In this document: positions 32,370 through 47,731 of the stretch, piece by piece | Numbering within the stretch: the first letter of the stretch is position 1 | Layout of the letters: each line of letters starts with the position of its first letter | Assembly (NCBI RefSeq): GCF_034555375.1 | Contig: NZ_CP140706.1 | Span: 2,905,001-2,969,000, forward strand | Direction of reading: 5' to 3' | Source of the DNA: Pseudomonas sp. B33.4 | Lineage (GTDB): Bacteria; Pseudomonadota; Gammaproteobacteria; Pseudomonadales; Pseudomonadaceae | DNA length: 64,000 nucleotides | The notes under the pieces: generated by a model | Seen by the model: only the letters and a program-made list of their open reading frames with translations | What the model was told of the DNA's origin: nothing | Database searches by the model: none | Program-made: the position numbers and the translations under genes

Positions 32370-32443
32370 GGCCGAGTAGCAAAATGGTTATGCAGTGGAT
32401 TGCAAATCCACCTACGCCGGTTCGATTCCGACCTCGGCCTCCA
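32370..32443 (+). tRNA. tRNA-Cys (GCA), site of island insertion
   Basis: A 74-base cloverleaf with acceptor arms GGCCGAG and CTCGGCC, anticodon GCA within GGATTGCAAATCC, T-loop TTCGATT and encoded CCA. The last 49 bases are repeated identically at 47681, so the gene served as attachment site. The tRNA itself is intact because the island supplies an identical 3' half. Confidence 0.97.
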
Positions 32444-32445
32444 CT
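32395..32445 (+). repeat. attL: 51-bp direct repeat within tRNA-Cys
   Basis: The 51 bases from the anticodon stem through the CCA end of tRNA-Cys and two bases beyond are identical to 47681-47731. Direct repeats of a tRNA 3' end bounding a block with an integrase remnant mark the ends of an integrated element. Confidence 0.9.
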
Positions 32446-32449
32446 CTTA

Positions 32450-32487
32450 AAAACCCCGTAGATCAATGATCTACGGGGTTTTTTTTG
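32450..32487 (+). terminator. Terminator after tRNA-Cys (island copy)
   Basis: AACCCCGTAGAT pairs with ATCTACGGGGTT and eight T residues follow. A diverged version of the same hairpin follows the right repeat at 47738. Confidence 0.9.
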
Positions 32488-32678
32488 CCTGAAAGAAAGT
32501 GGGGTGTTCCGCAATTTCTGGTGCGCGTTCCGCAACCCGGCCAAGGAAAATCTGTGTTATGTGACCAGTCTTCAAGAGAACGATTGCTGCGTGCTAATCT
32601 CACTTGATTGTGCTTTCGGGTAGCCATCCGTGCTGTCGCCCCTGCCAGGTGCGAGATCTCTACTTCAAGGAAATGAAG

Positions 32679-33490: not shown

Positions 33491-33516
33491 GCTGTACTGA
33501 AGTCATCCAGTCGGGT

Positions 33517-33960
33517 TCATTTGGTTGGTTTCACTATTTCTCCAACTCGACGATAGACTTTCTTGGTCATTTCTTCAGTGGAATGACCGAGTAATCGGCT
33601 TGCGTCCTTAATATCCTCAATCTCGCTGCCTGCTTTTGGTCGGATATCTCTGAATTGAAACTTCCGGATAGTGATGGCTAGTTCGGCGTCACCCTCAGTC
33701 GCCGCCTTCGTTGCAGCCTTGTCTCGGGCTTCGTCCCAGCGATTGCGCAACATGTTGTAGCTCATGCGAGGCCTGCTTGGTTGGTGATCAGGACCGAAGT
33801 TTTGGTACCGGCTTGGGCCCGCCGATCAAGTAGTCCGTTGATGAACACACAGAGGTCCGTTTCGTTGGTGCCGTCGTAGAGGCGGATCCGCAAGCGCTTT
33901 ACTGTCTTGCCCTGGCCAACCATCAGGAAGCCATGATTAAGATCGGTGGTCGATACCTTC
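33517..33960 (-). pseudogene. Tyrosine recombinase (integrase), decayed C-terminal part
   Basis: Two overlapping frames together encode the C-terminal half of a phage integrase: PADVLKVSTTDLNHGFL in one frame, then FQFRDIRPKAGSEI, ASRLLGHSTEEMTKKVYRR with the RxxR, LGHS and catalytic Tyr pattern in the other. The frame changes by one base at about 33763 (an ATGA overlap). Nothing recognisable of the N-terminal domain remains upstream. It is presumably the enzyme that inserted the island at tRNA-Cys and is now inactive unless the shift is a sequencing error. Confidence 0.75.
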
Positions 33961-34085
33961 AGCACATCAGCCGGGTCAGTTTCATCAGGCGGCTGAAGTA
34001 CTGCATGTACGCCTCTGGTGCGGATTGCGGGATGATGGTTTCGGGCATCGGTGGGACGCCGTGCAGGCATTCCCATTCGGCTGGG

Positions 34086-34433
34086 TGGTTTGATGAGCTG
34101 CGGCGCTCGACGGAGTTTCGCTGGGCCTCTCAAGAACGCCTAACGCGTCGATCGGCGCAACAGGCAGTGGGCATCGGTGAGGAAAAAATCACCCTGAAGG
34201 GCGCGATTTTTCCGGGCGTCAAAGGCGGCATCAAACAACTGGATACCCTGCGCAGTCTCGGTTCCCAGCTGAAACCGCTGACACTCACCAGCGGTTATGG
34301 TGACGTGCTGGGCACCTGGTGCCTGAAGAACGTTGAAGAAGAACATAGCGCGCTGCTGCAGGGCGGGATCCCGCGTAAGCAGGCATTTACTTTGGAGTTC
34401 GCGCGTTATGGCGATGACCTGCAGAACGTCTGA
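34086..34433 (+). pseudogene. P2-like tail protein gpU, N-terminally truncated
   Basis: About 115 codons match the gpU tail-terminator family: FDELRRSTEFRWASQERL, VGIGEEKITLKGAIFP, SGYGDVLGTWCL and a C-terminal FTLEFARYGDDL. The first 15 or so residues (the LGxFVF segment) are replaced by unrelated sequence, so the gene has lost its start at a deletion junction. Its 3' end overlaps gpX as in intact phages. It is the left boundary of the tail remnant. Confidence 0.7.
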
Positions 34434-34614
34434 CGGAGATCTGCTCGATACCCTGTGTTATCACGCGTATGGGCATCTGGACGGCACTGTCGAGGCGGTA
34501 CTCGATGCCAATCAGGGGCTGGCCGATGAGCCGCAGCCTTACCGCGCCGGCATCGTGATTGAGCTGCCGGATCTGCCGGCGTCCACCAACGGAGGAGTAA
34601 TGTTGTGGGGCTAA
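34414..34614 (+). CDS. P2-like tail protein gpX
   Basis: A 66-residue protein with the gpX pattern TSDGDLLDTLCYHAYG, VEAVLDANQGLAD, YRAGIVIELPDLP and LWG at the end, i.e. a LysM-like tail fold. It overlaps the end of gpU in a different frame, as usual in P2-like phages and R-type tailocins. An ATG six bases earlier would add two residues. Intact, although the surrounding tail module is broken. Confidence 0.8.
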   Translation: MTCRTSDGDLLDTLCYHAYGHLDGTVEAVLDANQGLADEPQPYRAGIVIELPDLPASTNGGVMLWG

Positions 34615-34702
34615 CACGTCCTTTGATATTGCGATGGCAGTTTGCCATGGATTTCCGGTGCCGATAGACTTGTCATTTTTAGGAATAGGTGAGAGCCGGT
34701 AC

Positions 34703-35023
34703 ATGGAAAAGTCGACGGAACTGAGGGAAGTTAAACGCAGTATCAAAGAGGAAATCCCTCATCGCATCATTTGGTTCATCATCTCCGCAGCAGTAATAGC
34801 TCTATTAGCCTTGATCCCAATTGTTGGGTGGATTCTGGCGTTGGTGATGGTGTTCGCGGTTTTCACCAAGATCTTCGGCTCTCGGGAATCCTTTCTAGTT
34901 GGCAACTGCCCGACCTGTACCAAGTTGTTGCCGGTGCCTGATACTGACGTGTTTGCCTGTCCCGTCTGTAACAGTGTGATTGCTGTAGGAGATGATAGTC
35001 TGACCATCGTTAAGACCGACTGA
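34703..35023 (+). CDS. Membrane protein with zinc-ribbon-like tail, phage moron
   Basis: A 106-residue protein: a charged N-terminus, one long or two short hydrophobic segments around residues 20-60 (IIWFIISAAVIALLALIP, WILALVMVFAVFTKIF) and a C-terminal four-Cys module (NCPTCTKL...ACPVCNSV) that could bind zinc. It is inserted between gpX and gpD, genes normally adjacent, and has its own terminator, the hallmarks of a moron gene. The Shine-Dalgarno is weak. Function unknown. Confidence 0.6.
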   Translation: MEKSTELREVKRSIKEEIPHRIIWFIISAAVIALLALIPIVGWILALVMVFAVFTKIFGSRESFLVGNCPTCTKLLPVPDTDVFACPVCNSVIAVGDDSLTIVKTD

Positions 35024-35060
35024 TCTGCAATGTCATGTAGCTAGCAAATTGATGAAACTA

Positions 35061-35083
35061 GCCCGCCTTGAGCGGGCTTTTTT
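35061..35083 (+). terminator. Rho-independent terminator after the moron gene
   Basis: GCCCGC-CTTGA-GCGGGC followed by six T residues, placed between the inserted membrane-protein gene and the gpD start. Confidence 0.85.
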
Positions 35084-35096
35084 ATGGATGAAACAA

Positions 35097-36147
35097 ATGA
35101 CCCCAGCCTTTCGAGTCGTGGCAAATGGCGCCGACATCACCACACTGATCAATGACCGGCTACTGCAGCTGAAAACCACGGACAAGCCCGGCATGGAATC
35201 CGATGAGTTCGAACTACGCATTGATGACCGCGACAGTGCGGTGGTGCTGCCCCCGCGCGGAGCCAGCATTGAGATCTTCCTCGGTTACGTCGAAACGTCG
35301 CTGACCCGCATCGGGAGCTACGTCGTCGACGAGATCGAGCTATCCGGCCCACCAGACACGCTGGTTATCACCGGCAAGGCCCAGCGACATGCGCGGCACC
35401 GGCAAGACCACCCGCAGTGGCAGCTGGGAGAGCGTGCCACTGTCGCAGATCGTTGCCGACGTCGCCGCACGCAATGGCTGGCAACCGGTGTGTCCGGTGC
35501 AAACCAAAGTGCCTCGCGCGGATCAACTCAGCGAATCGGATTTCAATTTCATCACCGGCCTGGCCAAGCAGTACGACTGCACGGCCAAGGTCGCCGACGG
35601 CAAGCTGCTGGTGATGCCGCGCCAAGCCGGGCAGAGCGCCTCGGGCAAGAGCTTTGGCGTTGTATTGATCCAGCGGCGCGACGTGAGTCGCTTCCAGTTT
35701 CGCCTCGGTGATCGCAACACGCACAAAGCGGTATCGACCAAGCACCAAGACAAGAAAACCGGAAAGCTCGCGGTCGTCACTCTCGACAACGACGAATCAC
35801 CGGACGGCTTGCCGCCTGTGCATACCGACCGCCACATCTACCCGAACAAGTCTGCAGCTGAAGAAGCAGCTAAGGCACGGCTGGCGGCTTTCAATCGGTC
35901 TACGGCCGGTGTCCGGTTGGAAATGCCAGGGCGCACCGATCTGTTCGCCGAGCGATCGATCAATGCCCAAGGGTTCAAGGTTGGCCTCGACGGCGAGTAC
36001 CTGGTCGACTCGGTGGAACAGGTGTTCACACGGTCCGGCTGGAGCACGACGGTCGAGTGCAACGGTGGCAAAAAAGGCAAGGCGAAGGCCAAAGGCAAGA
36101 AGAAAAAAGCGGTGAAGGATCTGAAGGTCGTTCAGCTCAAGGAGTAG
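35097..36147 (+). pseudogene. P2-like late control/tail protein gpD, frameshifted
   Basis: The two halves of gpD lie in different frames. The first begins MTPAFRVVANGADITTLIND and runs to VITGKA; the second continues as SDMRGTGKTTRSGSWESVPL, includes SESDFNFITGLAKQYDC and ends in a Lys-rich tail before VVQLKE. Joining them requires a one-base change near 35380, in the GGCCCAG stretch. Intact gpD forms the tail hub. The shift would truncate it to the N-terminal third, consistent with a non-functional tail module, unless it is a sequencing error. The chosen ATG matches the family N-terminus. Confidence 0.8.
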
Positions 36148-36265
36148 CAAAGTGTCCTTGGTCGTATTGAGATTGAACCGGGCTGGAGTAATTACATCTT
36201 GTTCGATGGCACGGAGTTTGGTTTTTCGTTAGCGTCTCTGAAACCCACCAGAAAGGTAGTTTGTG

Positions 36266-36418
36266 ATGCTTGGAAGACTGTACCTAACCCTTTATTTCGT
36301 GCCGATGCTCGCATTTGCAGCAGCAGCGTTGCCGCCATTCGTGGAGAAGAGGAATGCTGACTTAGAATGCGCGCATGAAATGGTCCGCCACCCTACCACC
36401 TCGAAATGTACCCTTTGA
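36266..36418 (+). CDS. Small putative exported protein in the phage remnant
   Basis: A 50-codon ORF with an AAAGGTAG Shine-Dalgarno six bases before the ATG. It begins MLGRLYLTLYFVPMLAFAAA, a plausible signal or membrane segment, followed by a short tail with two Cys. It lies between gpD and the endolysin. Another open frame runs through the same bases in the gpD frame after the gpD stop but has no start codon. Whether this ORF is expressed cannot be judged; lysis modules often hold small membrane proteins (holins) here. Confidence 0.4.
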   Translation: MLGRLYLTLYFVPMLAFAAAALPPFVEKRNADLECAHEMVRHPTTSKCTL

Positions 36419-36439
36419 TCGAAATGTCAATTAACTGAG

Positions 36440-36463
36440 AAGCCCGCGTAAAGCGGGCTTTTT
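36440..36463 (+). terminator. Rho-independent terminator before the endolysin gene
   Basis: AAGCCCGC-GTAA-AGCGGGCTTTTTC forms a short strong stem with a T-run between the small exported-protein ORF and the endolysin start. Confidence 0.8.
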
Positions 36464-36477
36464 CATTTGGAGCATTT

Positions 36478-37041
36478 ATGCAGATAACGACGCAGCAGAT
36501 TCAAACCATCATGCCCAACGCCCGCCGCCAAGCGGGCGTTTCTGTTTCCGCCCTCAACGCAGCTATGGCGCATCGACAGATCAACACACCGAAACGCCAA
36601 GCCGCATTCTTGGCTCAAGTCGGTCACGAGTCTGGTCAACTGCAGTACGTGCGCGAGCTGGGCGGCGATCAATACCTGAGCAAATACGACACGGGTACGC
36701 TGGCCGCAAAACTGGGCAACACCCCTGCAGCGGATGGCGATGGACAACGCTATCGCGGTCGCGGACTGATCCAGGTCACCGGCCATGACAACTACCTGCG
36801 CTGCAGCTTGGCGCTGTTCGGCGATGAGCGATTGCTACGCACTCCGGAGCTGCTGGAGCTGCCGCAATGGGCTGCTGAGTCAGCCGCGTGGTTCTGGTCG
36901 GTGAATGGGTTGAACTCCCTCGCGGATCAAAACGAATTCAACGCGATCACCCGAAGAATCAACGGCGGCCTTAATGGCCTGCAGGATCGGCTCGAACTGT
37001 GGGAGCGGGCGAGGGCGGTGTTTTGCGTTTCGGCGACTTGA
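36478..37041 (+). CDS. Phage endolysin, glycoside hydrolase family 19-like
   Basis: A 187-residue chitinase-like lysozyme as found in P2-like phages and R-type tailocins of Pseudomonas. Motifs: the catalytic region AAFLAQVGHESGQLQYVREL with the acidic residue, then RYRGRGLIQVTGHDNY, AAWFWSVNGLNSLAD and ITRRINGGLNGLQDR. It would cleave peptidoglycan glycan strands. No signal peptide is visible, so it relies on a holin. GGAGCATTT precedes the ATG. The stop overlaps the spanin gene start (TGATG). Confidence 0.85.
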   Translation: MQITTQQIQTIMPNARRQAGVSVSALNAAMAHRQINTPKRQAAFLAQVGHESGQLQYVRELGGDQYLSKYDTGTLAAKLGNTPAADGDGQRYRGRGLIQVTGHDNYLRCSLALFGDERLLRTPELLELPQWAAESAAWFWSVNGLNSLADQNEFNAITRRINGGLNGLQDRLELWERARAVFCVSAT

Positions 37042-37565
37042 TGCCAGCGCCGTATCGGCTGATGGTCAAACCGGTGCTACTGATCGCCTTGGCCGGCACA
37101 TCCGCAGCAATCACTTGGCAGGTGCAGGACTGGCGCTACGGTAGTCGCCTCAGCGAGCAGTCCCGGCTGCACACCGAAACCCTCAACCAACTGAATCTGG
37201 CCACGGCCGCGCAACGGCGTGCGGAACAGGACAAACGCCTCGCGCTCGAGCAGCGCCTGGCATCCAGCGAACAAACCCATTACCGAGCCTTGAGCGATGC
37301 CCAGCGTAATCAAGGTCGCCTGCGCGACCGCCTTGCCACTGCTGATCTGCGCTTGTCAGTCCTACTCGACGCCACCACCGGCGCCGGCAACGGATCGGTG
37401 TCAGTCACCACCGCCACCGGCGGCGTGGTTCATGGCTCCACAAGAGCCGAACTTGACCCGGCGCATGCTCACCGAATTATCGGCATCATCGTTGACGGCG
37501 ACCGGGGGCTGATCGCCCTCGCGGCCTGTCAGGCATACGCCAGAGAAGTCTCAACATCGAAGTGA
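37041..37565 (+). CDS. Rz-like inner-membrane spanin
   Basis: A 174-residue protein with one N-terminal membrane segment (LMVKPVLLIALAGTSAAITW) and a long helical periplasmic part rich in Ala, Gln, Arg and Leu that should form a coiled coil (about residues 45-110). This is the i-spanin/LysB layout. It starts within the endolysin stop (TGATG). A second reading frame inside it encodes an Rz1-like lipoprotein. Together they would disrupt the outer membrane after endolysin action. Confidence 0.75.
   Translation: MPAPYRLMVKPVLLIALAGTSAAITWQVQDWRYGSRLSEQSRLHTETLNQLNLATAAQRRAEQDKRLALEQRLASSEQTHYRALSDAQRNQGRLRDRLATADLRLSVLLDATTGAGNGSVSVTTATGGVVHGSTRAELDPAHAHRIIGIIVDGDRGLIALAACQAYAREVSTSK
37297..37512 (+). 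CDS. Rz1-like outer-membrane spanin lipoprotein nested inside Rz
   Basis: A 71-residue ORF entirely within the Rz gene in the +1 frame. It begins MPSVIKVACATALPLLICAC, a lipoprotein signal peptide with a Cys acceptor after a small residue. It is followed by a Pro-rich stretch (STPPPAPATD, SPPPPA), the usual Rz1 features. Nested Rz/Rz1 pairs are well known. This one survives in a remnant whose tail genes are broken, which may reflect constraint on the overlapping frame. Confidence 0.7.
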   Translation: MPSVIKVACATALPLLICACQSYSTPPPAPATDRCQSPPPPAAWFMAPQEPNLTRRMLTELSASSLTATGG

Positions 37566-37576
37566 AAAAGAGCGGC

Positions 37577-37604
37577 CGATCCGGATGCGTCGACATCCGG
37601 ATCG
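37577..37604. terminator. Perfect hairpin after the lysis genes
   Basis: CGATCCGGATG-N6-CATCCGGATCG is an 11-bp perfect stem 11 bases after the spanin stop. A T-run is missing, so termination is likely but not certain. Confidence 0.55.
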
Positions 37605-37794
37605 ACCGCCGTACCCGCAGATGGTCCCTAGAAGTCCAGCCAAGGCTGGTAGGGGGAGAGGGAGATGCACTTTTACTGTGATTTTTTGGAATACGACCGA
37701 CTTAAGTGTGATAATGACCGACCCATGCGACTTCGATGATTCAATCAGCAGCATTCGGCGTCATTCGTTAATCACCACAATGGAATCTAAGTAA

Positions 37795-38844
37795 ATGCAG
37801 AAAGACTATGTGGGCGGGATACAGGCCCTAAGGTTACTTGCTTGTTTCTTTGTTCTTTTTCAGCACGTAACATTCTTTACCTGTTACTTTAAAGGTCTAG
37901 ATTATCAGCCATTTCTGATGATTAATTTTGGTCGCATGGGTGTTAGTTTGTTTTTCGTGATATCTGGCTATGTCATGGGAATGTGTCTAGATCAAGGTAA
38001 GATGTTTCTTTGGAATCGTGTTGCGCGAGTATATCCGCCCTACTGGTTGGCCATAGTAGTTAGTTGGTTGGTTTTAGTTCCGCTCGGTGTCGATTGGACT
38101 TTTGACTTTAGGTCTGCGTTATTGTTGCCTACACTGCTAGTAAATAATAGCTATAAAATTCCTTACTGGACGCTCTGTTATGAGATGGCATTTTATGTGC
38201 TTGTATTTGCGCTGATGCTAATGAGGGCATCTCGCAAGAATATGTTGTGGTTCTGCGCTGCTTGGCTATCTGTGATCATCGTTGTTGACGCCTATAAGGT
38301 TATTGGCGACATCGATACGGCACAGGCTTTTGCACCTGTTGCTCAGCCAGGGTGGGGGATCCTAATAACGCCTTATCCGATCTTTTTTATCGCAGGATTG
38401 ATTGCTTCGATTGGCGGGCTTTCAAGATTTGAACGAATTCCACCTTTTTACCTTGTTTTGATTGCAATTTGCACTTGGGCAGTTAGCAATAATATGAGAC
38501 TTCCCTCACCTGGTCCGATGTTTATTATGCAGTCGTTCAGCTTTGTCTGTTTGATTGCTGCTTCGAAGCAGATAAGTTTCCCTTCTGTCGTTACTCGGTT
38601 GGGAGATTATTCGTACGGTATTTATCTTGTTCATATGATAATCATTGGTGCTTTGATTGCCCTGTTTAAAGCCTATAATGTGGAAATGCGATTCTCTGGA
38701 GTTTTTGCGATTTTTATGCTGTGCTCAATTATTGGTGGCTGCGCCTTTGGTTGGTTTGAGCACAAGCTTCATACCCGTTTTATTAAACGGGTATTTAGGA
38801 GCGAGCCTGTAAAGCCTGTTGCTCAATCGTTGAATGCGCAGTAG
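37795..38844 (+). CDS. Acyltransferase-3 family membrane protein (OafA-like)
   Basis: A 349-residue inner-membrane protein with about ten hydrophobic segments and the family start GGIQALRLLACFFVLFQHV, whose His is the conserved catalytic residue; RMGVSLFFVISGYVMG and ARVYPPYWLAI are also typical. Acyltransferase-3 proteins transfer acetyl or other acyl groups to O-antigen, exopolysaccharide or other glycans. The gene is markedly AT-rich and has no SGNH domain. Placed next to the phage lysis genes it looks like serotype-conversion cargo. A weak hairpin (GCCTGCCG...CGGCAGGC) lies 20 bases after the stop. The substrate is unknown. Confidence 0.85.
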   Translation: MQKDYVGGIQALRLLACFFVLFQHVTFFTCYFKGLDYQPFLMINFGRMGVSLFFVISGYVMGMCLDQGKMFLWNRVARVYPPYWLAIVVSWLVLVPLGVDWTFDFRSALLLPTLLVNNSYKIPYWTLCYEMAFYVLVFALMLMRASRKNMLWFCAAWLSVIIVVDAYKVIGDIDTAQAFAPVAQPGWGILITPYPIFFIAGLIASIGGLSRFERIPPFYLVLIAICTWAVSNNMRLPSPGPMFIMQSFSFVCLIAASKQISFPSVVTRLGDYSYGIYLVHMIIIGALIALFKAYNVEMRFSGVFAIFMLCSIIGGCAFGWFEHKLHTRFIKRVFRSEPVKPVAQSLNAQ

Positions 38845-39579
38845 CGCCGCCATTTTTCTCGCCTGCCGTTCACCGGCAGGCTGTGAGGCGTAGGTTTAGG
38901 TTTACAACTGGATTAGTTCGGCGGGAACGCTGACGGTGTTGCCGATCTTCGCTGCGACGATGGCGCGGCATGCGGCGATCGCTCGGGTTTCGCCGGGTTG
39001 GCGTTCAAATGGATCGCGCTTCGTGTCGGCCAGCCATGCAAAATAGGCACCGGGCACAACCCAGACGACATACTTCTCGATCAACCGTTCGATATCGAGC
39101 AGTTGGACGAAGGGCAGTTGCAGCTGACCGGCGACTGGCTGGCGCCGAAAATCAGATGGCGTTGCTGCTGTCACTGGGGCTGTCGCTCGACAGCAGTGCG
39201 CTGCCGCCGTGGGCGTGGGGCATCATTCGGATGCTCGACGACTCGATGTCCGATGATTGCAAGGAGGACGTGCTGATTGAAGGGATGGTGCTGTTCACGA
39301 AGTTTTCTTGACGCCGCACGACATTCGAGACCGACATCCCAGAACAGATGACGTCTGCGATGGCGATCGTAAATGGGGGGGGCTCGTCTGGCAAATATAT
39401 CCGCAACTCAGGAGGCAGTCGCGGCCGGCAAGCCAGTCGACCCCTCCCGGTTCTACCCGACCGACCCCAACGATCTGTTATGACCTCTGATCTACGGTTG
39501 TGCAGGGTGGACGATCGCCCCCGACCCTAGGCCGAGACCTATCTACTTGCATTCGACCTGCTCTCACATCTACATCGGA
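38845..39579. other. Gene-poor junction between acyltransferase and sugar operon
   Basis: Several short overlapping frames occur on both strands but none has a convincing start, length or recognisable product. A stretch around 39160-39310 reads like the end of a protein (SLGLSLDSSALPPWAWGIIRML) and may be a remnant. An 8-base G run preceded by GTAAAT is at 39375. I take the region to be decayed phage or island sequence. Confidence 0.5.
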
Positions 39580-40725
39580 TTATCGTTTGGCAAGGTCTAT
39601 GGAGCGCAACAGCACGTCAATTACTTCGTTCTGCTCGTTATGTGTCAATCCCACCCATAACGGCAGACGGATAAGTCGCGCAGGTAGCGTTTCGGTGACA
39701 TGCAGCGCGCCGTGTGCACGCCCTAAAGCGCGCCCCGCCGGCGCCGTGTGCAGCGGCACATAGTGGAATACCGCACCGATACCATACTGCTTCATGCGTT
39801 GGAGCACTGCGTCGCGATCCACATCCGCGGCGAGCAGCACGTAGTACATATGCCCGTTATGCGTGCAAGTGTCGGGCACGATCGGGCGGCGCAGGATGCC
39901 GGCCGCCTCGGCGGCCTCTAGGCACTCATGATAATAGCGCCACGACGAGAGGCGCTCTCTCCCGATGCGGTCGGACTGTTCCAGTTGCGCCCACAAAAAA
40001 GCCGCTGTCAGTTCGCCAGGCAGAAACGACGAGCCGACCTCCTGCCATGTGTACTTGTCGACCTCGCCGCGAAAAAAGCGGCTCCGGTCCGTACCTTTCT
40101 CACGGATGATCTCGGCGCGCAGTACGCTCTCGGGCTTTTTGACGAGCAGCGCACCGCCCTCGCCGGAGATCACATTTTTGGTTTCATGAAAGCTGTACGT
40201 GCCAAAATCGCCGATACTGCCGAGTTCCTTTCCTCGATATGTAGACGTTACGCCTTGCGCCGCGTCCTCTATCACGAGGATGTTGTGACGCCGCGCGATT
40301 GCGAGGATCGAGTCCATCTCGCAACTAACGCCCGCGTAGTGCACCGGCACAATCGCGCGCGTGCGCGGCGTGATCGCGGCCTCAATGAGACGTTCGTCGA
40401 GATTTAGCGTATCCGCGCGAATATCGACAAACACCGGCACACCGCCACGCAATACGAACGCATTTGCGGTCGATACGAATGTATAGGACGGCATGATGAT
40501 TTCGTCGCCGGGCCTAATTCCTGCGAGTATGGCGCTCATCTCTAGCGCCGCCGTGCATGAATGCGTAAGCAGCGCTCGAGCGGCGCCCGTGCGCGCTTCG
40601 AGCCATGCATGGCAGCGCTTTGTATATGCTCCATCGCCCGCGAATTGTAGATTTGCGTGCGCGTCGGAGATGTAGGTAAGTTCTAGCCCTGTCATATACG
40701 GCTTATTGAACGGGATATGGATCAT
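39580..40725 (-). CDS. DegT/DnrJ/EryC1 sugar aminotransferase (RffA/WecE-like)
   Basis: A 381-residue PLP aminotransferase of the sugar type. It begins IPFNKPYMTGLELTYI, characteristic of dTDP-4-amino-4,6-dideoxygalactose transaminase (RffA/WecE). The PLP lysine is in SFHETKNVISGEGG, and VIEDAAQGV and DFGTYSFHETK are also diagnostic. It would convert a dTDP-4-keto-6-deoxyhexose to the 4-amino sugar with glutamate. It is the last gene of a seven-gene minus-strand operon with four-base overlaps; AAGGAAG precedes the ATG. The hexose donor (rmlAB products) must come from elsewhere. The exact stereochemistry is not predictable. Confidence 0.88.
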   Translation of the reverse strand: MIHIPFNKPYMTGLELTYISDAHANLQFAGDGAYTKRCHAWLEARTGAARALLTHSCTAALEMSAILAGIRPGDEIIMPSYTFVSTANAFVLRGGVPVFVDIRADTLNLDERLIEAAITPRTRAIVPVHYAGVSCEMDSILAIARRHNILVIEDAAQGVTSTYRGKELGSIGDFGTYSFHETKNVISGEGGALLVKKPESVLRAEIIREKGTDRSRFFRGEVDKYTWQEVGSSFLPGELTAAFLWAQLEQSDRIGRERLSSWRYYHECLEAAEAAGILRRPIVPDTCTHNGHMYYVLLAADVDRDAVLQRMKQYGIGAVFHYVPLHTAPAGRALGRAHGALHVTETLPARLIRLPLWVGLTHNEQNEVIDVLLRSIDLAKR

Positions 40726-41588
40726 AACTTCCTTGCAATGAGAAAACGCGAGCCGCCCACCGGGAAATCGACGCCTGTGCGGATCATCCGCGCTTCGGCC
40801 ACCATTGCCGCGCTGAGCAGGCGGTTCAACCACGGCGCGACACTGAGTTCTGCCCCAGCTACTTCAGCATCGACGCCGCGACGGCTGAACCTCGACAGCA
40901 TCATCAGAGGTAACAGCATTGCGACGAAAGACGTGCTACGGACGATCGAGAATCCCGCGGCGCGCACCTTCGCGTGCAGATCGGCAGCGGCGTAGCGGCG
41001 CACATGACATGCATACTCGTCGGTGGCACTCCACAGCCACTGATGTTGAGGCACGGTCAGCAGCAGATGACCGCCCGGTCTTAGCGAGGCGTGTGCCTGG
41101 CTCAGCACCGTTTCGTCCTCCACGATGTGTTCGAGCACATCGAACATTCCGATCGCGCCATACTCGCCAGAGAACGGAATGTCACGTGCGTCCATTTGCA
41201 TGAAACCAGCGCCGGGCAGACGGTTTGCCGCGAACGAAAGCCCTGCCGAAAAAATCTCGCTACCTGCGACGCGTGCTTGCGGAAAAGCCGCGGCGAGCGC
41301 GGTTAGCACATAGCCGGTGCCACAGCCCACTTCAAGAAATGAGCCAAAGTCGCGCGCATAGTGGCGTAGCGCCCAAATGATCAACCGATTACGAGCTTCG
41401 AACCAGAAGTTACCGGTTTCGACTGCAGCGAGCTCGGCAAAGTGGCTTGCCTTGAAGCCAGGGCTTTCCGCACTCAGTGCTGGCGCATATGTCGGCAGCC
41501 CATTCTCCAGTGCCGGCTGCCAGCGGCAAGCCGGGCAGGCCATATCGCTGACCGGGTACAAGGTGTCGCAACTGAGGCACCGCTTCAC
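40722..41588 (-). CDS. Class I SAM-dependent methyltransferase with N-terminal Cys motif
   Basis: A 288-residue methyltransferase. The N-terminus has four Cys in a zinc-ribbon-like arrangement (CLSCDTLYPVSDMACPAC); then comes the SAM site FLEVGCGTGYVLTAL, the adjacent acidic residue in VAGSE and MFDVLEHIVEDETVL. The C-terminal part has a hydrophobic hairpin (SFVAMLLPLMMLSRF) that could touch the membrane. The GTG start has AGGAG six bases upstream and overlaps the GtrA-like stop (GTGA). Within this sugar operon it may methylate the transferred sugar or its lipid carrier form. Confidence 0.8.
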   Translation of the reverse strand: MKRCLSCDTLYPVSDMACPACRWQPALENGLPTYAPALSAESPGFKASHFAELAAVETGNFWFEARNRLIIWALRHYARDFGSFLEVGCGTGYVLTALAAAFPQARVAGSEIFSAGLSFAANRLPGAGFMQMDARDIPFSGEYGAIGMFDVLEHIVEDETVLSQAHASLRPGGHLLLTVPQHQWLWSATDEYACHVRRYAAADLHAKVRAAGFSIVRSTSFVAMLLPLMMLSRFSRRGVDAEVAGAELSVAPWLNRLLSAAMVAEARMIRTGVDFPVGGSRFLIARKL

Positions 41589-42001
41589 GGGTTGCTCCTG
41601 GCGATCGGATCGGGACGAGGAAACACAAGAAACTTGAATGTGACGAACAAGAAGCCCGCTACCGCTAGTATCGCCACCGCCTGCACGACGCGATATGGAA
41701 AGTGCAGGTGGTCGGCGAAGACCGCGAGAATCACGTAGTTCAGGAGGTATCCGCAAACATGAGCGCCGAAGTACTTGAATGCCGGCCCGGCGATGCCGCC
41801 GCGGTGGCCGAACGTCCAGTTGCGGTTGCTCCAGAATCCAGCGCTCGCGCCCGCAACATAAAGTACCGTCATTGCTGCCTTCGGCTCCATTCCTAGCCAG
41901 GTGATTAATATGAACAGGAGATAGCCGCCTAAATTCACGGCCCCACCGACGAGGCCATAGCGAAGCAGCTGGGCGAGCGACGCGCGCGATTGTGATGTCA
42001 T
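41585..42001 (-). CDS. GtrA-family membrane protein, probable glycolipid flippase
   Basis: A 138-residue protein with four hydrophobic segments and the GtrA pattern LLRYGLVGGAVNLGGYLLF at the start, then GFWSNRNWTF. GtrA proteins act with a GtrB-type glycosyltransferase and a serotype-specific transferase; GtrA is thought to move undecaprenyl-phosphate-linked sugar across the inner membrane. The start is ATG at a GTG-ATG pair; the GTG is possible too. It is translationally coupled to the methyltransferase downstream. Confidence 0.85.
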   Translation of the reverse strand: MTSQSRASLAQLLRYGLVGGAVNLGGYLLFILITWLGMEPKAAMTVLYVAGASAGFWSNRNWTFGHRGGIAGPAFKYFGAHVCGYLLNYVILAVFADHLHFPYRVVQAVAILAVAGFLFVTFKFLVFPRPDPIARSNP

Positions 42002-42008
42002 CACGTAC

Positions 42009-42689
42009 TCACCCCTGATCGCTGACGGTTACGGCCGTTGCCGGATCGAGTGTGCGTAGCCGCCGCGCCGGCGCACCAACATAGACGCAGAGGTCTTGCG
42101 TGTCGCGATTGACCATCGACTGGGCGCCAATCAGGGTATCGTCTCCGATGCGCCTGCTTTGCATCACCACGGCCGAGAAGCCGATGAAGTTGCGAGCACC
42201 GATCGTGACATTGCCGCCGAGCGTCGCATTGGCGGCGATGAAATTGTGATCGCCGATTTTGCTGTCGTGGCACAGGGTGGCGTTCGACCAGATTACGTTA
42301 TTCGAGCCGAGCTTAACGCCCGTCTCGATGACAGCGCCGGGCATGACAATCACGTTATCCCCGATAACCGCATCGGCGGCGATCCACGCGGTCGGATGCA
42401 TTAGATTGGCAAGTGGGTAGCCGCATTGTTTAATCGAGCGATACGCGCTTTCCCTTGCCAGCATGCTTCGATAGCCAACCGCGACGAACACCATCACGTC
42501 AGCGGGTGCGAAGCGATTGCACACTGTTTGCCAGCCGAGCAATGGTATGCCGTCGAGCTCTGAGATTCCGTCGGGCAGATACGATTCGTCGACGGTAAAT
42601 GCGTGAACCTGCATGCCGAGATCGTTTGTCGCGTACCGGTACACCAGTTGTGCAAACGGTCCCGCGCCGAAGATGATCAATCCTGTCAT
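42009..42689 (-). CDS. NeuD/PglD-like sugar N- or O-acetyltransferase
   Basis: A 226-residue protein with an N-terminal Rossmann-like nucleotide-sugar domain (LIIFGAGPFAQLVYRYA) and a C-terminal left-handed beta-helix of hexapeptide repeats (VIGDNVIVMPGAVI, IGDHNFIAANATLGGNV, IGDDTLIGAQSMVN) ending in YVGAPARRL. This is the layout of PglD/NeuD-type acetyltransferases that act on 4-amino-dideoxy nucleotide sugars. With the aminotransferase of the same operon it would make a 4-acetamido-4,6-dideoxy sugar. The ATG overlaps the previous stop (ATGA). Confidence 0.85.
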   Translation of the reverse strand: MTGLIIFGAGPFAQLVYRYATNDLGMQVHAFTVDESYLPDGISELDGIPLLGWQTVCNRFAPADVMVFVAVGYRSMLARESAYRSIKQCGYPLANLMHPTAWIAADAVIGDNVIVMPGAVIETGVKLGSNNVIWSNATLCHDSKIGDHNFIAANATLGGNVTIGARNFIGFSAVVMQSRRIGDDTLIGAQSMVNRDTQDLCVYVGAPARRLRTLDPATAVTVSDQG

Positions 42690-43663
42690 TCGCGCTCCCT
42701 ACACGATTCATCGCTCGCAGGTGGGGCGTGAGCGCGGTCGTCATGATAGATGGCTCTAACCAGCGAAGTCGGACGCCTCTTCACCTCGAGGAAGATCTTG
42801 GAGATGTAGATTCCGACCACTCCAATCGAAAAGATAATGACGCCGCCGATCAGGAACAGCGCGGCCATCAGCGACGTCCACCCGAGAAACACATGCCCCC
42901 AGAACAGCTTTCGCGCGAGGAGGTAGAGAATCACTGTCGTCGCGATGCCCGACGAAAGTAGGCCCAGGTAGAAGATCCCGGTAAGCGGCTTGCTGCTGAA
43001 CGACGTGATCGCGTCGATTGCCATCGTTAACTTCTTGCGAAAGGTGTACGACGAGTTGCCATCGAATATTTTTGTCGCAACGATGCGCTTCTGTCTGAAT
43101 CCCGCATCTTTCCAGACTGCGGGAAGAAACAGTTCCGTTTCACCGTACTGCAGTAGAGCGCTCACATAGCTGCGTTTCATGAGCCGCGAGACGATATCGC
43201 GATCTGATACCTGCACCGGCGAGAGCGCGTTGAACACTTTGTAAAAGAGGTCGCTGGTGAAGGCTTTCGCGAACGGAAGTGTCTTCTTCTCGAGTTGGCC
43301 TACCACCACGTCGGTTTCCGGGTCCTCGTCCATCTCGTGCCAGAAGCGGCCAAGATTCTCCGGTTCTTCCTCGAGATCGACGTCGATTACGAAAACATGC
43401 TCGCCGCTTGCGTAGCGCATGCCGGTGATTAGTGCGCGATGCTGACCGACGTTGCGCGCGAGATCGATCACCCTGACGCGGGGGTCAGACGCGCACAACC
43501 GGCGCGCCAATTCCAATGAATCGTCGGGAGACGCATCGTTGACAAACACAATCTCAAAAGACGATGTGAGTTTTTGCGCATCAGCCACAATGCGGAGATA
43601 AAACTCGTCGATGTAGCCTGCCGACCGATAAAGGCTGGTCACCACGGAGAGCTTTAACATCAT
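42686..43663 (-). CDS. GT2 family glycosyltransferase (GtrB/DPM1-like)
   Basis: A 325-residue glycosyltransferase: a GT-A domain with VVTSLYRSAGYIDEF, the Asp motifs IVFVNDASPDDSLELA and VIDVDLEEEPE, and two C-terminal membrane segments (GIFYLGLLSSGIATTVILYLL and AALFLIGGVIIFSIGVVGIYI). This is the polyprenyl-phosphate glycosyltransferase type of GtrB, ArnC and DPM1 relatives. It would load the sugar on undecaprenyl phosphate at the cytoplasmic face. The first of two tandem ATGs overlaps the previous stop (ATGA). Confidence 0.88.
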   Translation of the reverse strand: MMLKLSVVTSLYRSAGYIDEFYLRIVADAQKLTSSFEIVFVNDASPDDSLELARRLCASDPRVRVIDLARNVGQHRALITGMRYASGEHVFVIDVDLEEEPENLGRFWHEMDEDPETDVVVGQLEKKTLPFAKAFTSDLFYKVFNALSPVQVSDRDIVSRLMKRSYVSALLQYGETELFLPAVWKDAGFRQKRIVATKIFDGNSSYTFRKKLTMAIDAITSFSSKPLTGIFYLGLLSSGIATTVILYLLARKLFWGHVFLGWTSLMAALFLIGGVIIFSIGVVGIYISKIFLEVKRRPTSLVRAIYHDDRAHAPPASDESCRERE

Positions 43664-44352
43664 CGGACCCTCATGAAAGCCGCATGCTCGGGGCCGACGT
43701 TGAAAAGCAGATCTAGTATGCTCACGCCATGCGCGAACGGCGGAAAGAGCTGCGGATATTCCGGGTAGCCGTCATATTGCATCCATTCGACGCGTACACC
43801 AGCATTGGTAAAGAGAGTTTCGTCGAGATAGTCGCTGGCGGCCGGGCCTGACAGATAAATATCCGCACCCGCCTGCCGGCAGATGCCAACCAGCCGTTCG
43901 ACCCGGTCGCCTTCGAGCTCATAGTCTCTTGATGAAGTAATGTGGGTGGTGATGCCGAAAATCGCGCAGACCTCGCGAATGAAAAACGCATTAATATCTG
44001 ACAGTAGTTCGCACGCACCGGCCTCGCTGTACCACGCTTCGACCATAGGAGCATATTTTTCGAAGTGGGGCGCACGCGCATAATTGTTAACGACAGTTCT
44101 CCAGTGTCGTGCTGCCCAGCGCGAATCGACTACTCGCGTCTCGCTGATCTTCTGTCCTAGTCGGTCCTGGCGGACGGGAATCGTCAGCCATTGCACGCCG
44201 GTTTGGGTTTTGATGCGATTACGATTGCGCCAGTCATTCTTTGTGTACTGCACCTCGTCGTACAGGATGAACTCGTCAACTGAGCGGATCAGATCGAAGT
44301 AACCCTTCCACGGTACGTAGTTCGACTGGAGAATGGCGACTTTCCTGGTCAT
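43660..44352 (-). CDS. WbqC family protein
   Basis: A 230-residue protein of the WbqC family: VAILQSNYVPWKGYFDLI at the start, DEFILYDEVQYTKNDWRNRNRI, WLTIPV, then SGPAASDYLDE and FPPFAHGVSILDLLFN at the end. Members occur in O-antigen and flagellin-glycan clusters, and their biochemical role is not settled; some resemble acyl or aminoacyl transfer enzymes. The ATG overlaps the stop of the membrane glycosyltransferase gene, and the stop overlaps the GT2 start. An acyl modification of the amino sugar would be a reasonable guess. Confidence 0.8.
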   Translation of the reverse strand: MTRKVAILQSNYVPWKGYFDLIRSVDEFILYDEVQYTKNDWRNRNRIKTQTGVQWLTIPVRQDRLGQKISETRVVDSRWAARHWRTVVNNYARAPHFEKYAPMVEAWYSEAGACELLSDINAFFIREVCAIFGITTHITSSRDYELEGDRVERLVGICRQAGADIYLSGPAASDYLDETLFTNAGVRVEWMQYDGYPEYPQLFPPFAHGVSILDLLFNVGPEHAAFMRVR

Positions 44353-45521
44353 TGTCGGTCTGCCACTGCAGGCACGACTGGCGCACGCCGGCGCTTCCAT
44401 CGCGCGAGCGCGCTACGGATGAGCACAATAAAGTAGATCACGTACACAACACGCAGGAAGTAGAAGTAGCGGTTCTCGACGTGCGCAATTGCCATGCTAA
44501 GTGATACCGAGCAGAACGCGGTGATTACCAGTACCGCGAGCCACGGCTGGCCAGACGCGATCGAGGCAAAAGACAGGATCGCAACCAGTAGGAATGCGAT
44601 CACGGTGCCGGTGATCTCGGCGCCTGTGTAGTCGATTATCGGCGCCAATGCGTCGGCCGGCGGCCGTCCTGCGTACACCGCCCAGTAGAATTTGGATAGG
44701 CCTATCCAGAACTTTGTGGCGAAATATTGAATCTCCGGAACCTGCGCTGCCAGCTTCGAGAAATAAACAACCGCTGTCGGCTCCATGTACACGGCCAGTT
44801 CGACATAGGGCTGACGATTGGCTGGATCGAATGCGGCCATCGCGCGCAAGTCGTATAGCCACGGCACACCTGAATGCAGATATACCCACAAAATTTGCAC
44901 GAATCCCAGCGATGCACCGCAGCAAAAGCAGATGAGTGATGGAAGCGCGGATTTAATATCGCGCCTGCTAATTAGGGCAAGCCACAGTGGCACGATCAAT
45001 ACCGCGCTTACCGCGAAATTTTGCTTCATCAGGATCGAGGCGCCAAGAAGTATCCCTGCCAGGAATGCCTTGCCTTTCGTTGGGTTAAGTCCATCAGCGC
45101 TTAACAAACAGAATGACAGTAGGAATAGCGTCAGACTTTGAAGGTCGGACAGACGCACTGAAATGTAGCCAATTGAGAACAGTGTGATCAGAATAACAAG
45201 CGAAACATCGCCGATGAGTGGCCGTCTCTGTACGCCGGGCGGCAAAGCGCCGTTCTCGACGCTAGAGAATCGTCGCAGAAGCGTGAGACCAGCATAGATC
45301 AGCAGCACAAAGAAAAGCAGATTCTGGAACAGAGTGATATAGCTCACCAGAATTGGATCATCCGTGAACAGCAACGGGATGGCGTAGTAAATCACAATGC
45401 CGATGGGGCGATAGTCGTGATAACAGGTAGCGCCCGGGTCATCGCTGCCTAGGAGGAAATGCGCACACGCGGTAGCCACTTCAAGATACTGGGGCGCATC
45501 CCCGATCGAAGGAAAATCCAT
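44349..45521 (-). CDS. Multi-pass membrane protein, probable GT-C glycosyltransferase (GtrC-like)
   Basis: A 390-residue integral membrane protein with about nine hydrophobic segments. The start MDFPSIGDAPQYLEVATACA recalls the first periplasmic loop of GT-C transferases, whose acidic residue is catalytic, but the usual preceding membrane helix is missing, so the protein is either short or starts upstream. It heads the operon. In gtr cassettes the third, serotype-specific gene encodes such a protein, moving sugar from the lipid to the O-antigen in the periplasm. No close family was recognised, as expected for this variable component. Confidence 0.6.
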   Translation of the reverse strand: MDFPSIGDAPQYLEVATACAHFLLGSDDPGATCYHDYRPIGIVIYYAIPLLFTDDPILVSYITLFQNLLFFVLLIYAGLTLLRRFSSVENGALPPGVQRRPLIGDVSLVILITLFSIGYISVRLSDLQSLTLFLLSFCLLSADGLNPTKGKAFLAGILLGASILMKQNFAVSAVLIVPLWLALISRRDIKSALPSLICFCCGASLGFVQILWVYLHSGVPWLYDLRAMAAFDPANRQPYVELAVYMEPTAVVYFSKLAAQVPEIQYFATKFWIGLSKFYWAVYAGRPPADALAPIIDYTGAEITGTVIAFLLVAILSFASIASGQPWLAVLVITAFCSVSLSMAIAHVENRYFYFLRVVYVIYFIVLIRSALARWKRRRAPVVPAVADRQ

Positions 45522-46358
45522 GCTCTGCTCTAATACGGGGCGAATCTGCGAGGTTAGTCTAAAGCGTTGAAATTTACAACAAATGCCAACGGCGTCTCGG
45601 GGTGGCCAGGGAGCTGATCAGGGACAGAGCATCAAAATCAGAATAGTGGCGTGAGCTGGAGCAAGTCGAATAGGTAATCGGAGTCCATCTGGTGATCGTC
45701 ATCGTTCGAGATGTGCGTGTGTCGATCTGGATACCAGTGACCCTCCCAGCCCATCAGCGAGGATTCGGTCTGTTTTGGACTCCAGTTGTCTCGGCTCAAG
45801 TAGTTCAGAGCGTGTCGAATCGTATCGTCCCCCCCCCGTATGCCATGCGGGAGCTTCAGGGATTGCTAGAGCTTCACATCACCATCAGTCTGTCGTCACT
45901 AGCAGCCATTTGGCAGTGGTTGCCACTTGGACCGCCCGTCAACGTCGATTCGCTCTGCCGTGCGGGCCTATTCGCCCTCTGAGTTTTTCGGCCTTGTGGT
46001 AAATGGGGGGGGGGGGGGGGGGGCAAGCGATGCGGCAGGGGCGCCTGTTCGTTGCAGTCATCGTTTTAATACCTTATGGAAAGAAAAAGCACCGCATCGT
46101 GGCGGACGACGCGAGGCGAGTTGAGGGGCAGCGAAGCAAGATCTCGTACCAATAAACGTGTTTTGGCATGATTGAGCAAGTATGGTTTTGATCTAAGCCC
46201 TTGATTTAATTGTTCCTGAAAGCTTACTGGACACCTTGAAGCAAAGCGGTGTAATTCTGCTCTCAGGTTTTTCGACAGATTGGAAATTTCTTTCTGGACC
46301 AAATTGGACTGATCGATCCATGTCCTGGTTGACTAGGGGGAGCTACAGCGACTGGGAT
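45522..46358. other. Gene-poor region with homopolymer tracts
   Basis: No convincing gene is present. A 78-codon minus-strand frame at 46066-46302 starts only at a TTG without a ribosome site. The stretch contains a 9-base C run (45829-45837) and a 19-base G run (46005-46023). The promoter of the seven-gene sugar operon should lie at the left edge, but no clear -35/-10 pair was identified. Confidence 0.5.
46005..46023. repeat. Poly-G tract of 19 bases
   Basis: Nineteen consecutive G residues preceded by GGTAAAT. A shorter copy of the same context (CGTAAAT followed by eight G) lies at 39368-39382, on the other side of the sugar operon. Tracts this long vary in length during replication and are also error-prone in sequencing. 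Confidence 0.8.
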
Positions 46359-46574
46359 CTAGGACGCCCCCTTTCCCTTCAGCTTGGCTAAGCCTTGCTT
46401 GATGTGTCCAGCGTTCTCGCCAATTACCCATAAGGCGCCCCGTACGTTGTCTCCGACCTCGCTCATCCCTTGCTTCTCAGAATGAAGCGTCAGCTACATC
46501 AGTGCTGCCTCTAGGGCGAGCTGATTCTGGTACATCCTTTCTAGCACGTCCGATAACGAATATTCGTCTGGCAT
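46359..46574 (-). pseudogene. Small conserved-type gene broken by an in-frame TAG
   Basis: A strong Shine-Dalgarno (AAAGGAGG) precedes an ATG whose frame reads MPDEYSLSDVLERMYQNQLA and LEAALM, then a TAG, then continues for 44 more codons (LTLHSEKQGMSEVGDNVRGA ... HIKQGLAKLKGKGAS) to a normal stop. The part after the TAG keeps coding character, and its layout resembles the 76-residue protein at 48634-48864. A GAG-to-TAG change would explain it. The function of these small helical proteins is unknown to me. Confidence 0.65.
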
Positions 46575-46818
46575 GGCATCGCCTCCTTTCGAGAAAAAGT
46601 ACAAGCATAGTACCGTTAGTGCCCCTGTCAGGCAGTGATTGCGGATTGCTTAGAAATTGCTACAAAGCGAAGAGATTTTAGCGGGTGAGCCCTTCAGGCT
46701 GGGGTGTTGGCGGAGACCTGCGCCCAATCCATCATCGTATCGATCAAGACGTACGAAGCTGGAAATCGAATAGCAACGATGGCAAAGTGCCTTCTTGCCA
46801 TTTTGAGAGGGAGGCGGT

Positions 46819-47511
46819 ATGTACCAGCAGGTACTGGCGCTATTCAGCAGCGACGGTGCAGTTGCGGCCGCCATAGGTGTGCTGGTGGCAGTGATTGTCA
46901 AATCTATATCCATGTTGAATCAGATTATGGAATTTCATGACAAGCACTTCATCGAAAAGCGGTACAAGCTTTTAAAGCAGCTGGCTTCCGGGATTCCGGT
47001 AGAGAGCAGAGTAAAGCGTTACCTGGATGACTCCGTAGAACATGAGATATTTCGTATCGTGTCAGGCATCAGAGGCAGCTCTTTGCAGATCGCAGCTCTG
47101 GTCAAATTGGACAGCCTAGGTTATTGGAATCGGGAGCAGATTCGGAGAGTCGCTAGGTTCCTGGTGGTCACGCCAGGGGAGCCACACCCACTGGTCAAGA
47201 TCACAAAGGCAGACAAATTTGGGGCAATGTTTGGCCTGACGTTTGCCATTCTCCTTCTTCTGACTGGGGGAGTGATTTCGATCGCGCTGACCATCAAAAT
47301 TCCCCCTTTTGGATTCTTCATAGGGTTGACCGTGTTAAGTGTGATGATATGGGCGGGAGCCTTTTTTGCGGCCGACCATGGTGCCTATAAGACTGCCCTA
47401 GATATCCAGAAGTACCTCGCCGAGCATCCCAATACGTTCGCAACGCATCTGTCGGGGAGAGGTGCACCGTCAGAAAATAGGGTTGAAAATGAGGTTCAAG
47501 CCACTACGTAG
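46819..47511 (+). CDS. Membrane protein of unknown function, island cargo next to attR
   Basis: A 230-residue protein with an N-terminal hydrophobic segment (AVAAAIGVLVAVIVKSISML), a central helical soluble part (about residues 35-130, KRYKLLKQL ... REQIRRVARFLV) and two adjacent C-terminal membrane helices (FGLTFAILLLLTGGVISIAL, GFFIGLTVLSVMIWAGAFFA). A GGGAGG Shine-Dalgarno lies 5 bases before the ATG. I do not recognise the family. The position as the last island gene, alone before attR, is typical for accessory cargo such as stress or defence genes; no function can be assigned. Confidence 0.65.
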   Translation: MYQQVLALFSSDGAVAAAIGVLVAVIVKSISMLNQIMEFHDKHFIEKRYKLLKQLASGIPVESRVKRYLDDSVEHEIFRIVSGIRGSSLQIAALVKLDSLGYWNREQIRRVARFLVVTPGEPHPLVKITKADKFGAMFGLTFAILLLLTGGVISIALTIKIPPFGFFIGLTVLSVMIWAGAFFAADHGAYKTALDIQKYLAEHPNTFATHLSGRGAPSENRVENEVQATT

Positions 47512-47680
47512 ATAGCTATCAACGGAGCTAGCGGGCTGACTGTCTCGCGATTGGTCGGGCGTGAAAAGAGTTCGCAACGATATTTGTCCCCTTGATGGGG
47601 CGTGCCCTAGGGGGCTTTAGAAATCAGTAGCTTGCGTAACACATCGCGTGCTAACCTATTGATCTACTTAGCTTTGTAGC

Positions 47681-47731
47681 GTGGATTGCAAATCCACCTA
47701 CGCCGGTTCGATTCCGACCTCGGCCTCCACT
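47681..47731 (+). repeat. attR: second copy of the tRNA-Cys 3' end
   Basis: Fifty-one bases identical to 32395-32445, starting in the anticodon stem and including the CCA. The 5' half of the tRNA is absent, so this is not a functional tRNA gene. It marks the right end of the island, about 200 bases before tRNA-Leu. Confidence 0.9.

What the first reader, a model, noticed from the sequence alone, without database searches (positions are those of the whole stretch)
39580..45521. Seven-gene overlapping operon that looks like a gtr-type cassette with its own sugar-synthesis genes
From 45521 down to 39580 the genes encode a membrane protein of GT-C type, WbqC, a GT2 with two C-terminal membrane helices (GtrB-like), a PglD/NeuD-like acetyltransferase, GtrA, a SAM methyltransferase and an RffA/WecE-like aminotransferase. 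All but one junction overlap by 4 bases. Known gtr cassettes pair GtrA and GtrB with one variable transferase and use glucose. Here the sugar would be a 4-acetamido-4,6-dideoxyhexose, possibly methylated or acylated. Its place in an island next to phage lysis genes and an O-acyltransferase suggests serotype conversion.
Basis: partly seen in the sequence, partly recalled or inferred. Interest (0 to 1): 0.75.

Follow-up and report, generated by a model that had tools for sequence, protein, structure and literature searches.

The report
Prophage-borne amino-sugar surface decoration cassette
A decayed phage remnant in a bacterial chromosome carries seven overlapping genes that appear to make an unusual amino sugar and attach it to the cell's outer sugar coat, a more self-contained version of a known way in which phages change bacterial surfaces.

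Summary
In detail: seven minus-strand genes (45521-39580), five of six junctions overlapping by 4 bases. Best reading: a three-component periplasmic glycosylation cassette that makes its own sugar, probably an N-acylated 4-amino-4,6-dideoxygalactose, for the O-antigen (acceptor inferred).

Weak points: moderate GT-C model, no biochemical evidence, acceptor unknown.

The parts
32395..32445 (+). attL: 51-base repeat covering the 3' end of tRNA-Cys(GCA) (tRNA 32370-32443)
   Evidence: the repeat ends where the empty site resumes in 12 of 20 relatives
33517..33975 (-). Integrase remnant (3' part only)
   Evidence: PHROG 1 integrase E 3.1e-4 on the 82-aa ORF 33517-33765; DNA 33519-33975 83.6% identical to the 3' part of the G019 integrase gene (PF00589)
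33933..36147 (+). Phage tail genes; the last one is split over two frames (35049-35711 and 35389-36147)
   Evidence: PHROG 4094/76 tail and PHROG 52 tail, the two pieces covering profile 189-284 and 287-530
36478..37041 (+). Endolysin (glycoside hydrolase 19 type)
   Evidence: PF00182, PHROG 181
36999..37565 (+). Rz-like spanin; left edge of the cargo slot
   Evidence: PHROG 2466, 174.2 bits
37795..38844 (+). Acyltransferase-3 (O-acetyltransferase type), cargo
   Evidence: PF01757 94.2 bits, PHROG 3333 O-acetyltransferase
39580..40725 (-). WecE-type sugar aminotransferase
   Evidence: TIGR02379 593.7 bits; solved WecE structures 470 and 456 bits, next family 184
40722..41588 (-). SAM-dependent methyltransferase with an N-terminal cysteine-rich stretch
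   Evidence: PF13489 61 bits; start from the GTGA overlap
41585..42004 (-). GtrA-type flippase
   Evidence: PF04138 60.1 bits, cut-off 26.1
42009..42689 (-). NeuD/PglD/VioB-type sugar N-acetyltransferase
   Evidence: TIGR03570 174.9 bits; solved PglD, VioB and perosamine N-acetyltransferase relatives
42686..43663 (-). GtrB/ArnC-type polyprenyl-phosphate glycosyltransferase (GT2)
   Evidence: PHROG 841; solved GtrB-type sll0501 144 bits, ArnC 97 bits
43660..44352 (-). WbqC, proposed amino-sugar-modifying enzyme
   Evidence: PF08889; model pLDDT 95 closest to BshC
44349..45521 (-). GT-C-like membrane glycosyltransferase, first membrane helix absent
   Evidence: 15 homologues; model pLDDT 57; VIA-align rows
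46005..46023 (-). C19 tract upstream of the operon, possible slippage site
46819..47511 (+). Unassigned ORF (230 aa) at the right end of the cargo slot
   Evidence: no Pfam, NCBIfam or PHROGs hit
47681..47731 (+). attR: second copy of the 51-base tRNA-Cys repeat
   Evidence: 47612-47731 is 86.7% identical to the right end of the G019 prophage

Best explanation
The seven genes are a self-supplied three-component glycosylation cassette, stranded in the cargo slot of a decayed tRNA-Cys prophage. WecE converts dTDP-4-keto-6-deoxyglucose from the host's own pathway to dTDP-Fuc4N. NeuD, and probably WbqC, acylate the 4-amino group; the methyltransferase adds a methyl group at an unknown position. 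The GT2 loads the finished sugar on undecaprenyl phosphate, GtrA flips it, and the GT-C-like protein transfers it in the periplasm to a surface glycan, most likely the O-antigen. Shown by computation: gene families, operon layout, prophage setting, co-occurrence of the core set. Inferred: the exact sugar, the order of acylation, the acceptor, and any effect on phage or tailocin sensitivity.
For: Family assignments. Tight overlaps. Host rmlB over its cut-off; an rmlA-like ORF beside it recognised by eye. In 11 related cassettes of the genus: WbqC next to GT2 in 10, WecE in 10, a flippase candidate (GtrA 6 or EamA-type 4, never both) in 10, an N-acyl transferase candidate (NeuD 8 or formyltransferase-like 2, never both) in 10, wbpM within the 20-kb segment in 9 (Pfam checks of examples). 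The two weaker GT-C relatives (G088, G352) also have GtrA (PF04138 71.9 and 84.5 bits) and a GT2-type gene next to them. att repeats, empty sites and a 38-kb prophage at the same site. Phage GtrB proteins match the GT2 at about 30-35% identity.
Confidence: 0.7

Rival explanations
1. Refinement: WbqC is an ATP-dependent BshC-like ligase that joins an amino acid to the 4-amino group of the dTDP-sugar, and NeuD then acetylates the amino acid, so the surface sugar is an aminoacylated Fuc4N rather than plain Fuc4NAc.
Against: No sequence-level link: none of 36 WbqC members matched a BshC family in Pfam and no PDB sequence matched the WbqC profile. Foldseek gave no hit at E<=0.001. BshC activity itself was not shown in vitro according to the 2015 review. 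The control segments are not polysaccharide loci, where DegT genes are common in any case.
Confidence: 0.3
2. Same chemistry, other acceptor: the GT-C-like protein decorates an exopolysaccharide, another LPS part, a lipid or a protein instead of the O-antigen.
For: No acceptor evidence exists in this genome; the cassette stands alone in a prophage. L023 carries the set without wbpM in the 20-kb segment. ArnT, a GT-C enzyme that modifies lipid A (recalled), is among the fold matches.
Against: 9 of 11 related cassettes lie near wbpM, and phage cassettes of this kind classically act on O-antigen (PMC11127046 and PMC11436027, passages).
Confidence: 0.22
3. The cassette is a silent relic of the decayed prophage and makes nothing.
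For: The prophage is broken: integrase reduced to a fragment, a tail gene split over two frames, no capsid, portal or terminase family among the 13 non-cassette ORFs scanned. Few promoter-like sites. The GT-C is rare: 3 of 398 genomes at E<=1e-10, own included, the other two at 37% and 32% identity.
Against: All seven frames are intact and of the length of relatives, with overlaps preserved, beside broken phage genes.
Confidence: 0.12

Closest known systems
Phage gtrABC seroconversion operons (P22, SfI, SfII, SfIV and others)
   Same: GtrA, GtrB-type GT2 and a GT-C-like transferase, in a prophage close to an att site; GT2 about 30% identical
   Different: Carries its own aminotransferase, N-acetyltransferase, WbqC and methyltransferase; the sugar is not glucose
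Three-component pentofuranose system of Citrobacter youngae O1/O2 (PMC11127046, passages)
   Same: Cassette that includes synthesis of its own lipid-linked donor, a flippase and a GT-C enzyme; decorates O-polysaccharide
   Different: Donor made by a UbiA-type phosphoribosyltransferase instead of a GT2 using a nucleotide sugar; pentofuranose instead of an amino sugar
Arn (L-Ara4N) pathway
   Same: Amino sugar, ArnC-like GT2 (97 bits), GT-C transfer; EamA-type transporters in sister cassettes recall ArnE/ArnF (recalled)
   Different: Transaminase scores as WecE, not ArnB; no ArnA- or ArnD-like gene in the cassette; own arn-like genes lie elsewhere (L031)
Enterobacterial common antigen Fuc4NAc branch
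   Same: WecE-type transaminase
   Different: NeuD-type acetyltransferase and GT2 plus flippase plus GT-C here; WecD and WecF (recalled) have no counterpart recognised in the cassette
Pseudomonas phage D3 serotype conversion (PMC11436027, passages)
   Same: Pseudomonas prophage that alters O-antigen; the island here also holds an acyltransferase-3 gene
   Different: D3 is described there as acting by O-acetylation of a fucosamine residue, not by adding a sugar
BshC (bacillithiol synthesis), for WbqC only
   Same: Predicted fold over 220 of 232 residues; putative ligase acting on an amino-sugar amine
   Different: 540 residues in the solved chain against 230; no detectable sequence similarity; different pathway

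Membership tests
Three-component (Gtr-type) periplasmic glycosylation system | GT2 polyprenyl-phosphate glycosyltransferase with C-terminal membrane helices | tested here: met
   PHROG 841 and solved GtrB/ArnC relatives; two C-terminal hydrophobic segments; activity untested
Three-component (Gtr-type) periplasmic glycosylation system | GtrA-type flippase | tested here: met
   PF04138 60.1 bits, cut-off 26.1
Three-component (Gtr-type) periplasmic glycosylation system | GT-C transferase | tested here: inconclusive
Three-component (Gtr-type) periplasmic glycosylation system | Transfer of a lipid-phosphate-linked sugar to a periplasmic glycan | not testable with these tools
   Needs biochemistry or LPS analysis
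Prophage seroconversion cassette | Lies in a prophage cargo position | tested here: met
   Between spanin and attR of a tRNA-Cys prophage remnant
Prophage seroconversion cassette | Changes the O-serotype | not testable with these tools
   No phenotype data
WecE (dTDP-Fuc4N transaminase) | Scores over the curated family cut-off | tested here: met
   TIGR02379 593.7 against 434.85; WecE structures 470 and 456 bits
Arn (L-Ara4N) pathway | ArnB-type transaminase | tested here: not met
   NF008658 192 bits against a cut-off of 631
WbqC family | PF08889 over cut-off | tested here: met
   268.4 against 21.3
BshC-type ligase | BshC sequence family | tested here: not met
   36 of 36 members match WbqC; no BshC family among the matches
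BshC-type ligase | Same fold | tested here: inconclusive
Flagellin or pilin glycosylation island | Adjacent flagellin or pilin gene | not tested
   No dedicated search was made; none was recognised by eye in the island's ORF list

The most novel reading that the evidence does not exclude
WbqC belongs to an undescribed class of BshC-fold ligases that couple an amino acid to nucleotide-linked 4-amino sugars, and this prophage-borne cassette uses it to put an aminoacylated Fuc4N on the O-antigen, possibly switched on and off by slippage of the C19 tract upstream. Phages would then spread a complete pathway for an amino-acid-bearing surface sugar that the host did not make before.
Probability: 0.18. 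Interest if true: 0.78.

Novelty: new variant of a known kind. Interest (0 to 1): 0.57.

Why it matters
Three-component cassettes are a main route by which phages reshape bacterial surface glycans, and O-antigen composition and display were the most important factors in tailocin sensitivity in a screen of pseudomonads (PMC8319346, abstract and passages). A cassette that brings its own amino-sugar pathway does not depend on the host making that sugar. The interchangeable flippases (GtrA or EamA-type) and acyl-transferase candidates (NeuD or formyltransferase-like) in sister cassettes are a natural experiment on modular parts. The WbqC result turns a widespread and apparently uncharacterised family into a concrete, testable prediction of an amide ligase.

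Tried and rejected
No yield. GT-C relatives: viral contigs by single protein and by alignment A1, plasmids and phages: none. GT-C in 293 'relatives' at E<=1e-30: own genome and G088 only. Foldseek of the GT-C model: no hit at E<=0.001. DNA of 45522-46818 in plasmids: no match. Papers: 'WbqC' gave 12 papers, most of them on unrelated subjects by title; four hold 'WbqC-like' or 'WbqC family'; terms for glycyl-acylated Qui4N gave 0. I saw these as listings only and read none of the WbqC papers.

Considered and rejected or demoted. Arn pathway: the transaminase is WecE-type. ECA branch: different acetyltransferase and transfer route. WbqC as obligatory partner of the GT2: of the 29 non-own WbqC loci returned, 10 have a full-length GT2 beside WbqC, one a partial match, 18 none. 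GT-C gene truncated by recombination: all 15 homologues listed start at the same M[DN]FP, so the missing first helix looks like a family trait.

Weak points. C19: 29 of 199 genomes, own included, hold a C run of 16 or more on either strand, a few with hundreds of matches that look like assembly artefacts; I looked at 12 places fetched by the tool (L156-L167), at G130 in L026 and at my own. Besides my own, two lie upstream of wbpM (G130, G193), one lies 0.36 kb after an acyltransferase-like ORF named by eye (G057); in the other ten I recognised no glycan gene. The control (20 tRNA-Cys segments) is not matched for polysaccharide loci. Gene lists of loci are mechanical longest-ORF lists named by BLAST or by eye. 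'GT-C' labels in other loci are guesses from position and hydrophobicity; of four of those scanned with Pfam, three had no hit and one a sub-cut-off PMT_2 hit. Equal longest-contig lengths (10 of 15 GT-C homologues against the 120 WbqC rows listed) are only a proxy for co-location. EamA type was confirmed over the cut-off for L019 alone, just under it for L018; L020, L021 and L023 rest on similarity to L019. Glycyl-acylated Qui4N in some O-antigens is recalled and unverified.
Full report
WHAT IS THERE. Seven minus-strand ORFs run from 45521 to 39580. Pfam, NCBIfam and PHROGs name six: WbqC, GT2, NeuD-type acetyltransferase, GtrA, methyltransferase, WecE-type aminotransferase. The first ORF has no HMM hit. 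Five of six junctions overlap by four bases; NeuD and GtrA are four bases apart. Likely coordinates: GT-C 45521-44349, WbqC 44352-43660, GT2 43663-42686, NeuD 42689-42009, GtrA 42004-41585, methyltransferase 41588-40722, aminotransferase 40725-39580.

THE ISLAND. A 51-base perfect direct repeat of the 3' end of tRNA-Cys lies at 32395-32445 and 47681-47731. I fetched the tRNA-Cys site of 20 relatives (of 30 loci returned). In 12 of the 20 (L091-L094, L096, L101-L107) the sequence that follows the right copy here follows tRNA-Cys within two bases; in six the gap is 0.9-4.8 kb; in two (G019, G148) the right flank is beyond the 20-kb segment. So the 15.3 kb between the repeats is an insertion. In G019, 98% identical over the 344-base left flank, the two att copies enclose about 38 kb: an integrase near the left end (PF00589), terminase- and tail-like ORFs named by eye, endolysin, an Rz-type spanin (PF03245), two small ORFs, attR. 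The window's island keeps the 3' part of that integrase (33519-33975, 83.6% DNA identity), tail genes, endolysin and spanin and the right end (47612-47731, 86.7%). Its integrase is a fragment and its last tail gene is split over two frames, so it is decayed. Between the spanin and the right end, where G019 has two small ORFs, it has an acyltransferase-3 gene, the seven-gene cassette and an unassigned ORF (46819-47511).

THE CASSETTE ELSEWHERE. The GT2 was searched in 199 genomes of the genus; 12 match at E<=1e-60, own included. In the 20-kb segments of the other 11 (L019-L029), WbqC lies next to GT2 in 10 and a WecE homologue (66-73% identity) in 10. GtrA is in six and an EamA-type small transporter in four, never both. 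NeuD is in eight and a formyltransferase-like protein in two, never both. wbpM, used in print as the 3' boundary of the O-antigen cluster (PMC8319346, passages), is in nine (Pfam of examples). The odd one, L027, has only GT2 and a PhyH-like gene. In genome contigs two loci came up, a Legionella waltersii locus and a Hyphomicrobiales contig, and both hold WbqC-, NeuD- and WecE-like genes. In plasmids, three of the rows listed have an annotated WbqC under or beside the GT2 match (H21-H23). The own genome has one WbqC; its wbpM region (L109) has rml-like genes, an ABC-transporter-like pair and another DegT aminotransferase. Close relatives of GT-C (74-95% for 12 of 15) and of WbqC are named as Pseudomonas, Paraburkholderia and, for WbqC, Ralstonia proteins. 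For 10 of 15 GT-C homologues a WbqC homologue is listed with the same longest-contig length.

POSSIBLE SWITCH. A C19 run lies about 480 bases upstream (46005-46023). It is the only C/G run of 12 or more in the 6.6-Mb genome. Of 199 genomes 29 have a run of 16 or more. Among 13 other places looked at, two lie upstream of wbpM: C34 in G130, 0.1-0.3 kb before wbpM and beside its own cassette, and G24 in G193, about 90 bases before wbpM. In most of the others I recognised no glycan gene. This is a lead only.

COMPARISON AND NOVELTY. The logic is that of three-component systems; galactose and pentofuranose versions are published and a phage-encoded pentofuranose example is mentioned (PMC11127046, passages). 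D3 conversion is described as O-acetylation (PMC11436027, passages). In the held library no title or abstract start that I saw describes a cassette of this composition (listings); most subscription papers are not held, so this is weak evidence of absence. I rate it a new variant of a known kind: the self-supplied WecE/WbqC/NeuD module in a prophage slot is the new part, and WbqC the most interesting component.

Noticed in passing
46005-46023: C19 (minus strand) run, the only C/G run of 12 or more in the genome; long C/G runs also lie just upstream of wbpM in two other genomes (G130, G193).
   Followed up: partly
44349-45521: The GT-C-like protein and all 15 listed homologues lack the first membrane helix that other GT-C enzymes have; the likely catalytic loop starts at the initiator methionine.
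   Followed up: partly
32395-47731: tRNA-Cys is a busy integration site in the genus: empty in 12 of 20 relatives, 0.9-4.8 kb inserts in six, element-sized inserts in two.
   Followed up: partly
Own genome C1 1561527-1563544 (L030): A second set with a GT2 (33% identical, one in-frame stop in the match), a methyltransferase-like stretch and GtrA (54.9 bits); a third GtrA hit at 5.27 Mb.
   Followed up: no
46819-47511: A 230-aa ORF with hydrophobic stretches and no family hit at the right end of the cargo slot.
   Followed up: no
L125, L126 (viral contigs): WbqC beside NeuD-, PhyH- and GH130-like genes in two 127-131-kb viral contigs, without GT2 or GtrA.
   Followed up: partly
37795-38844 and L040 14853-15902: The island's acyltransferase-3 gene has a 74% identical relative in G088, about 16 kb from a wbpM-like gene named by eye.
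   Followed up: no
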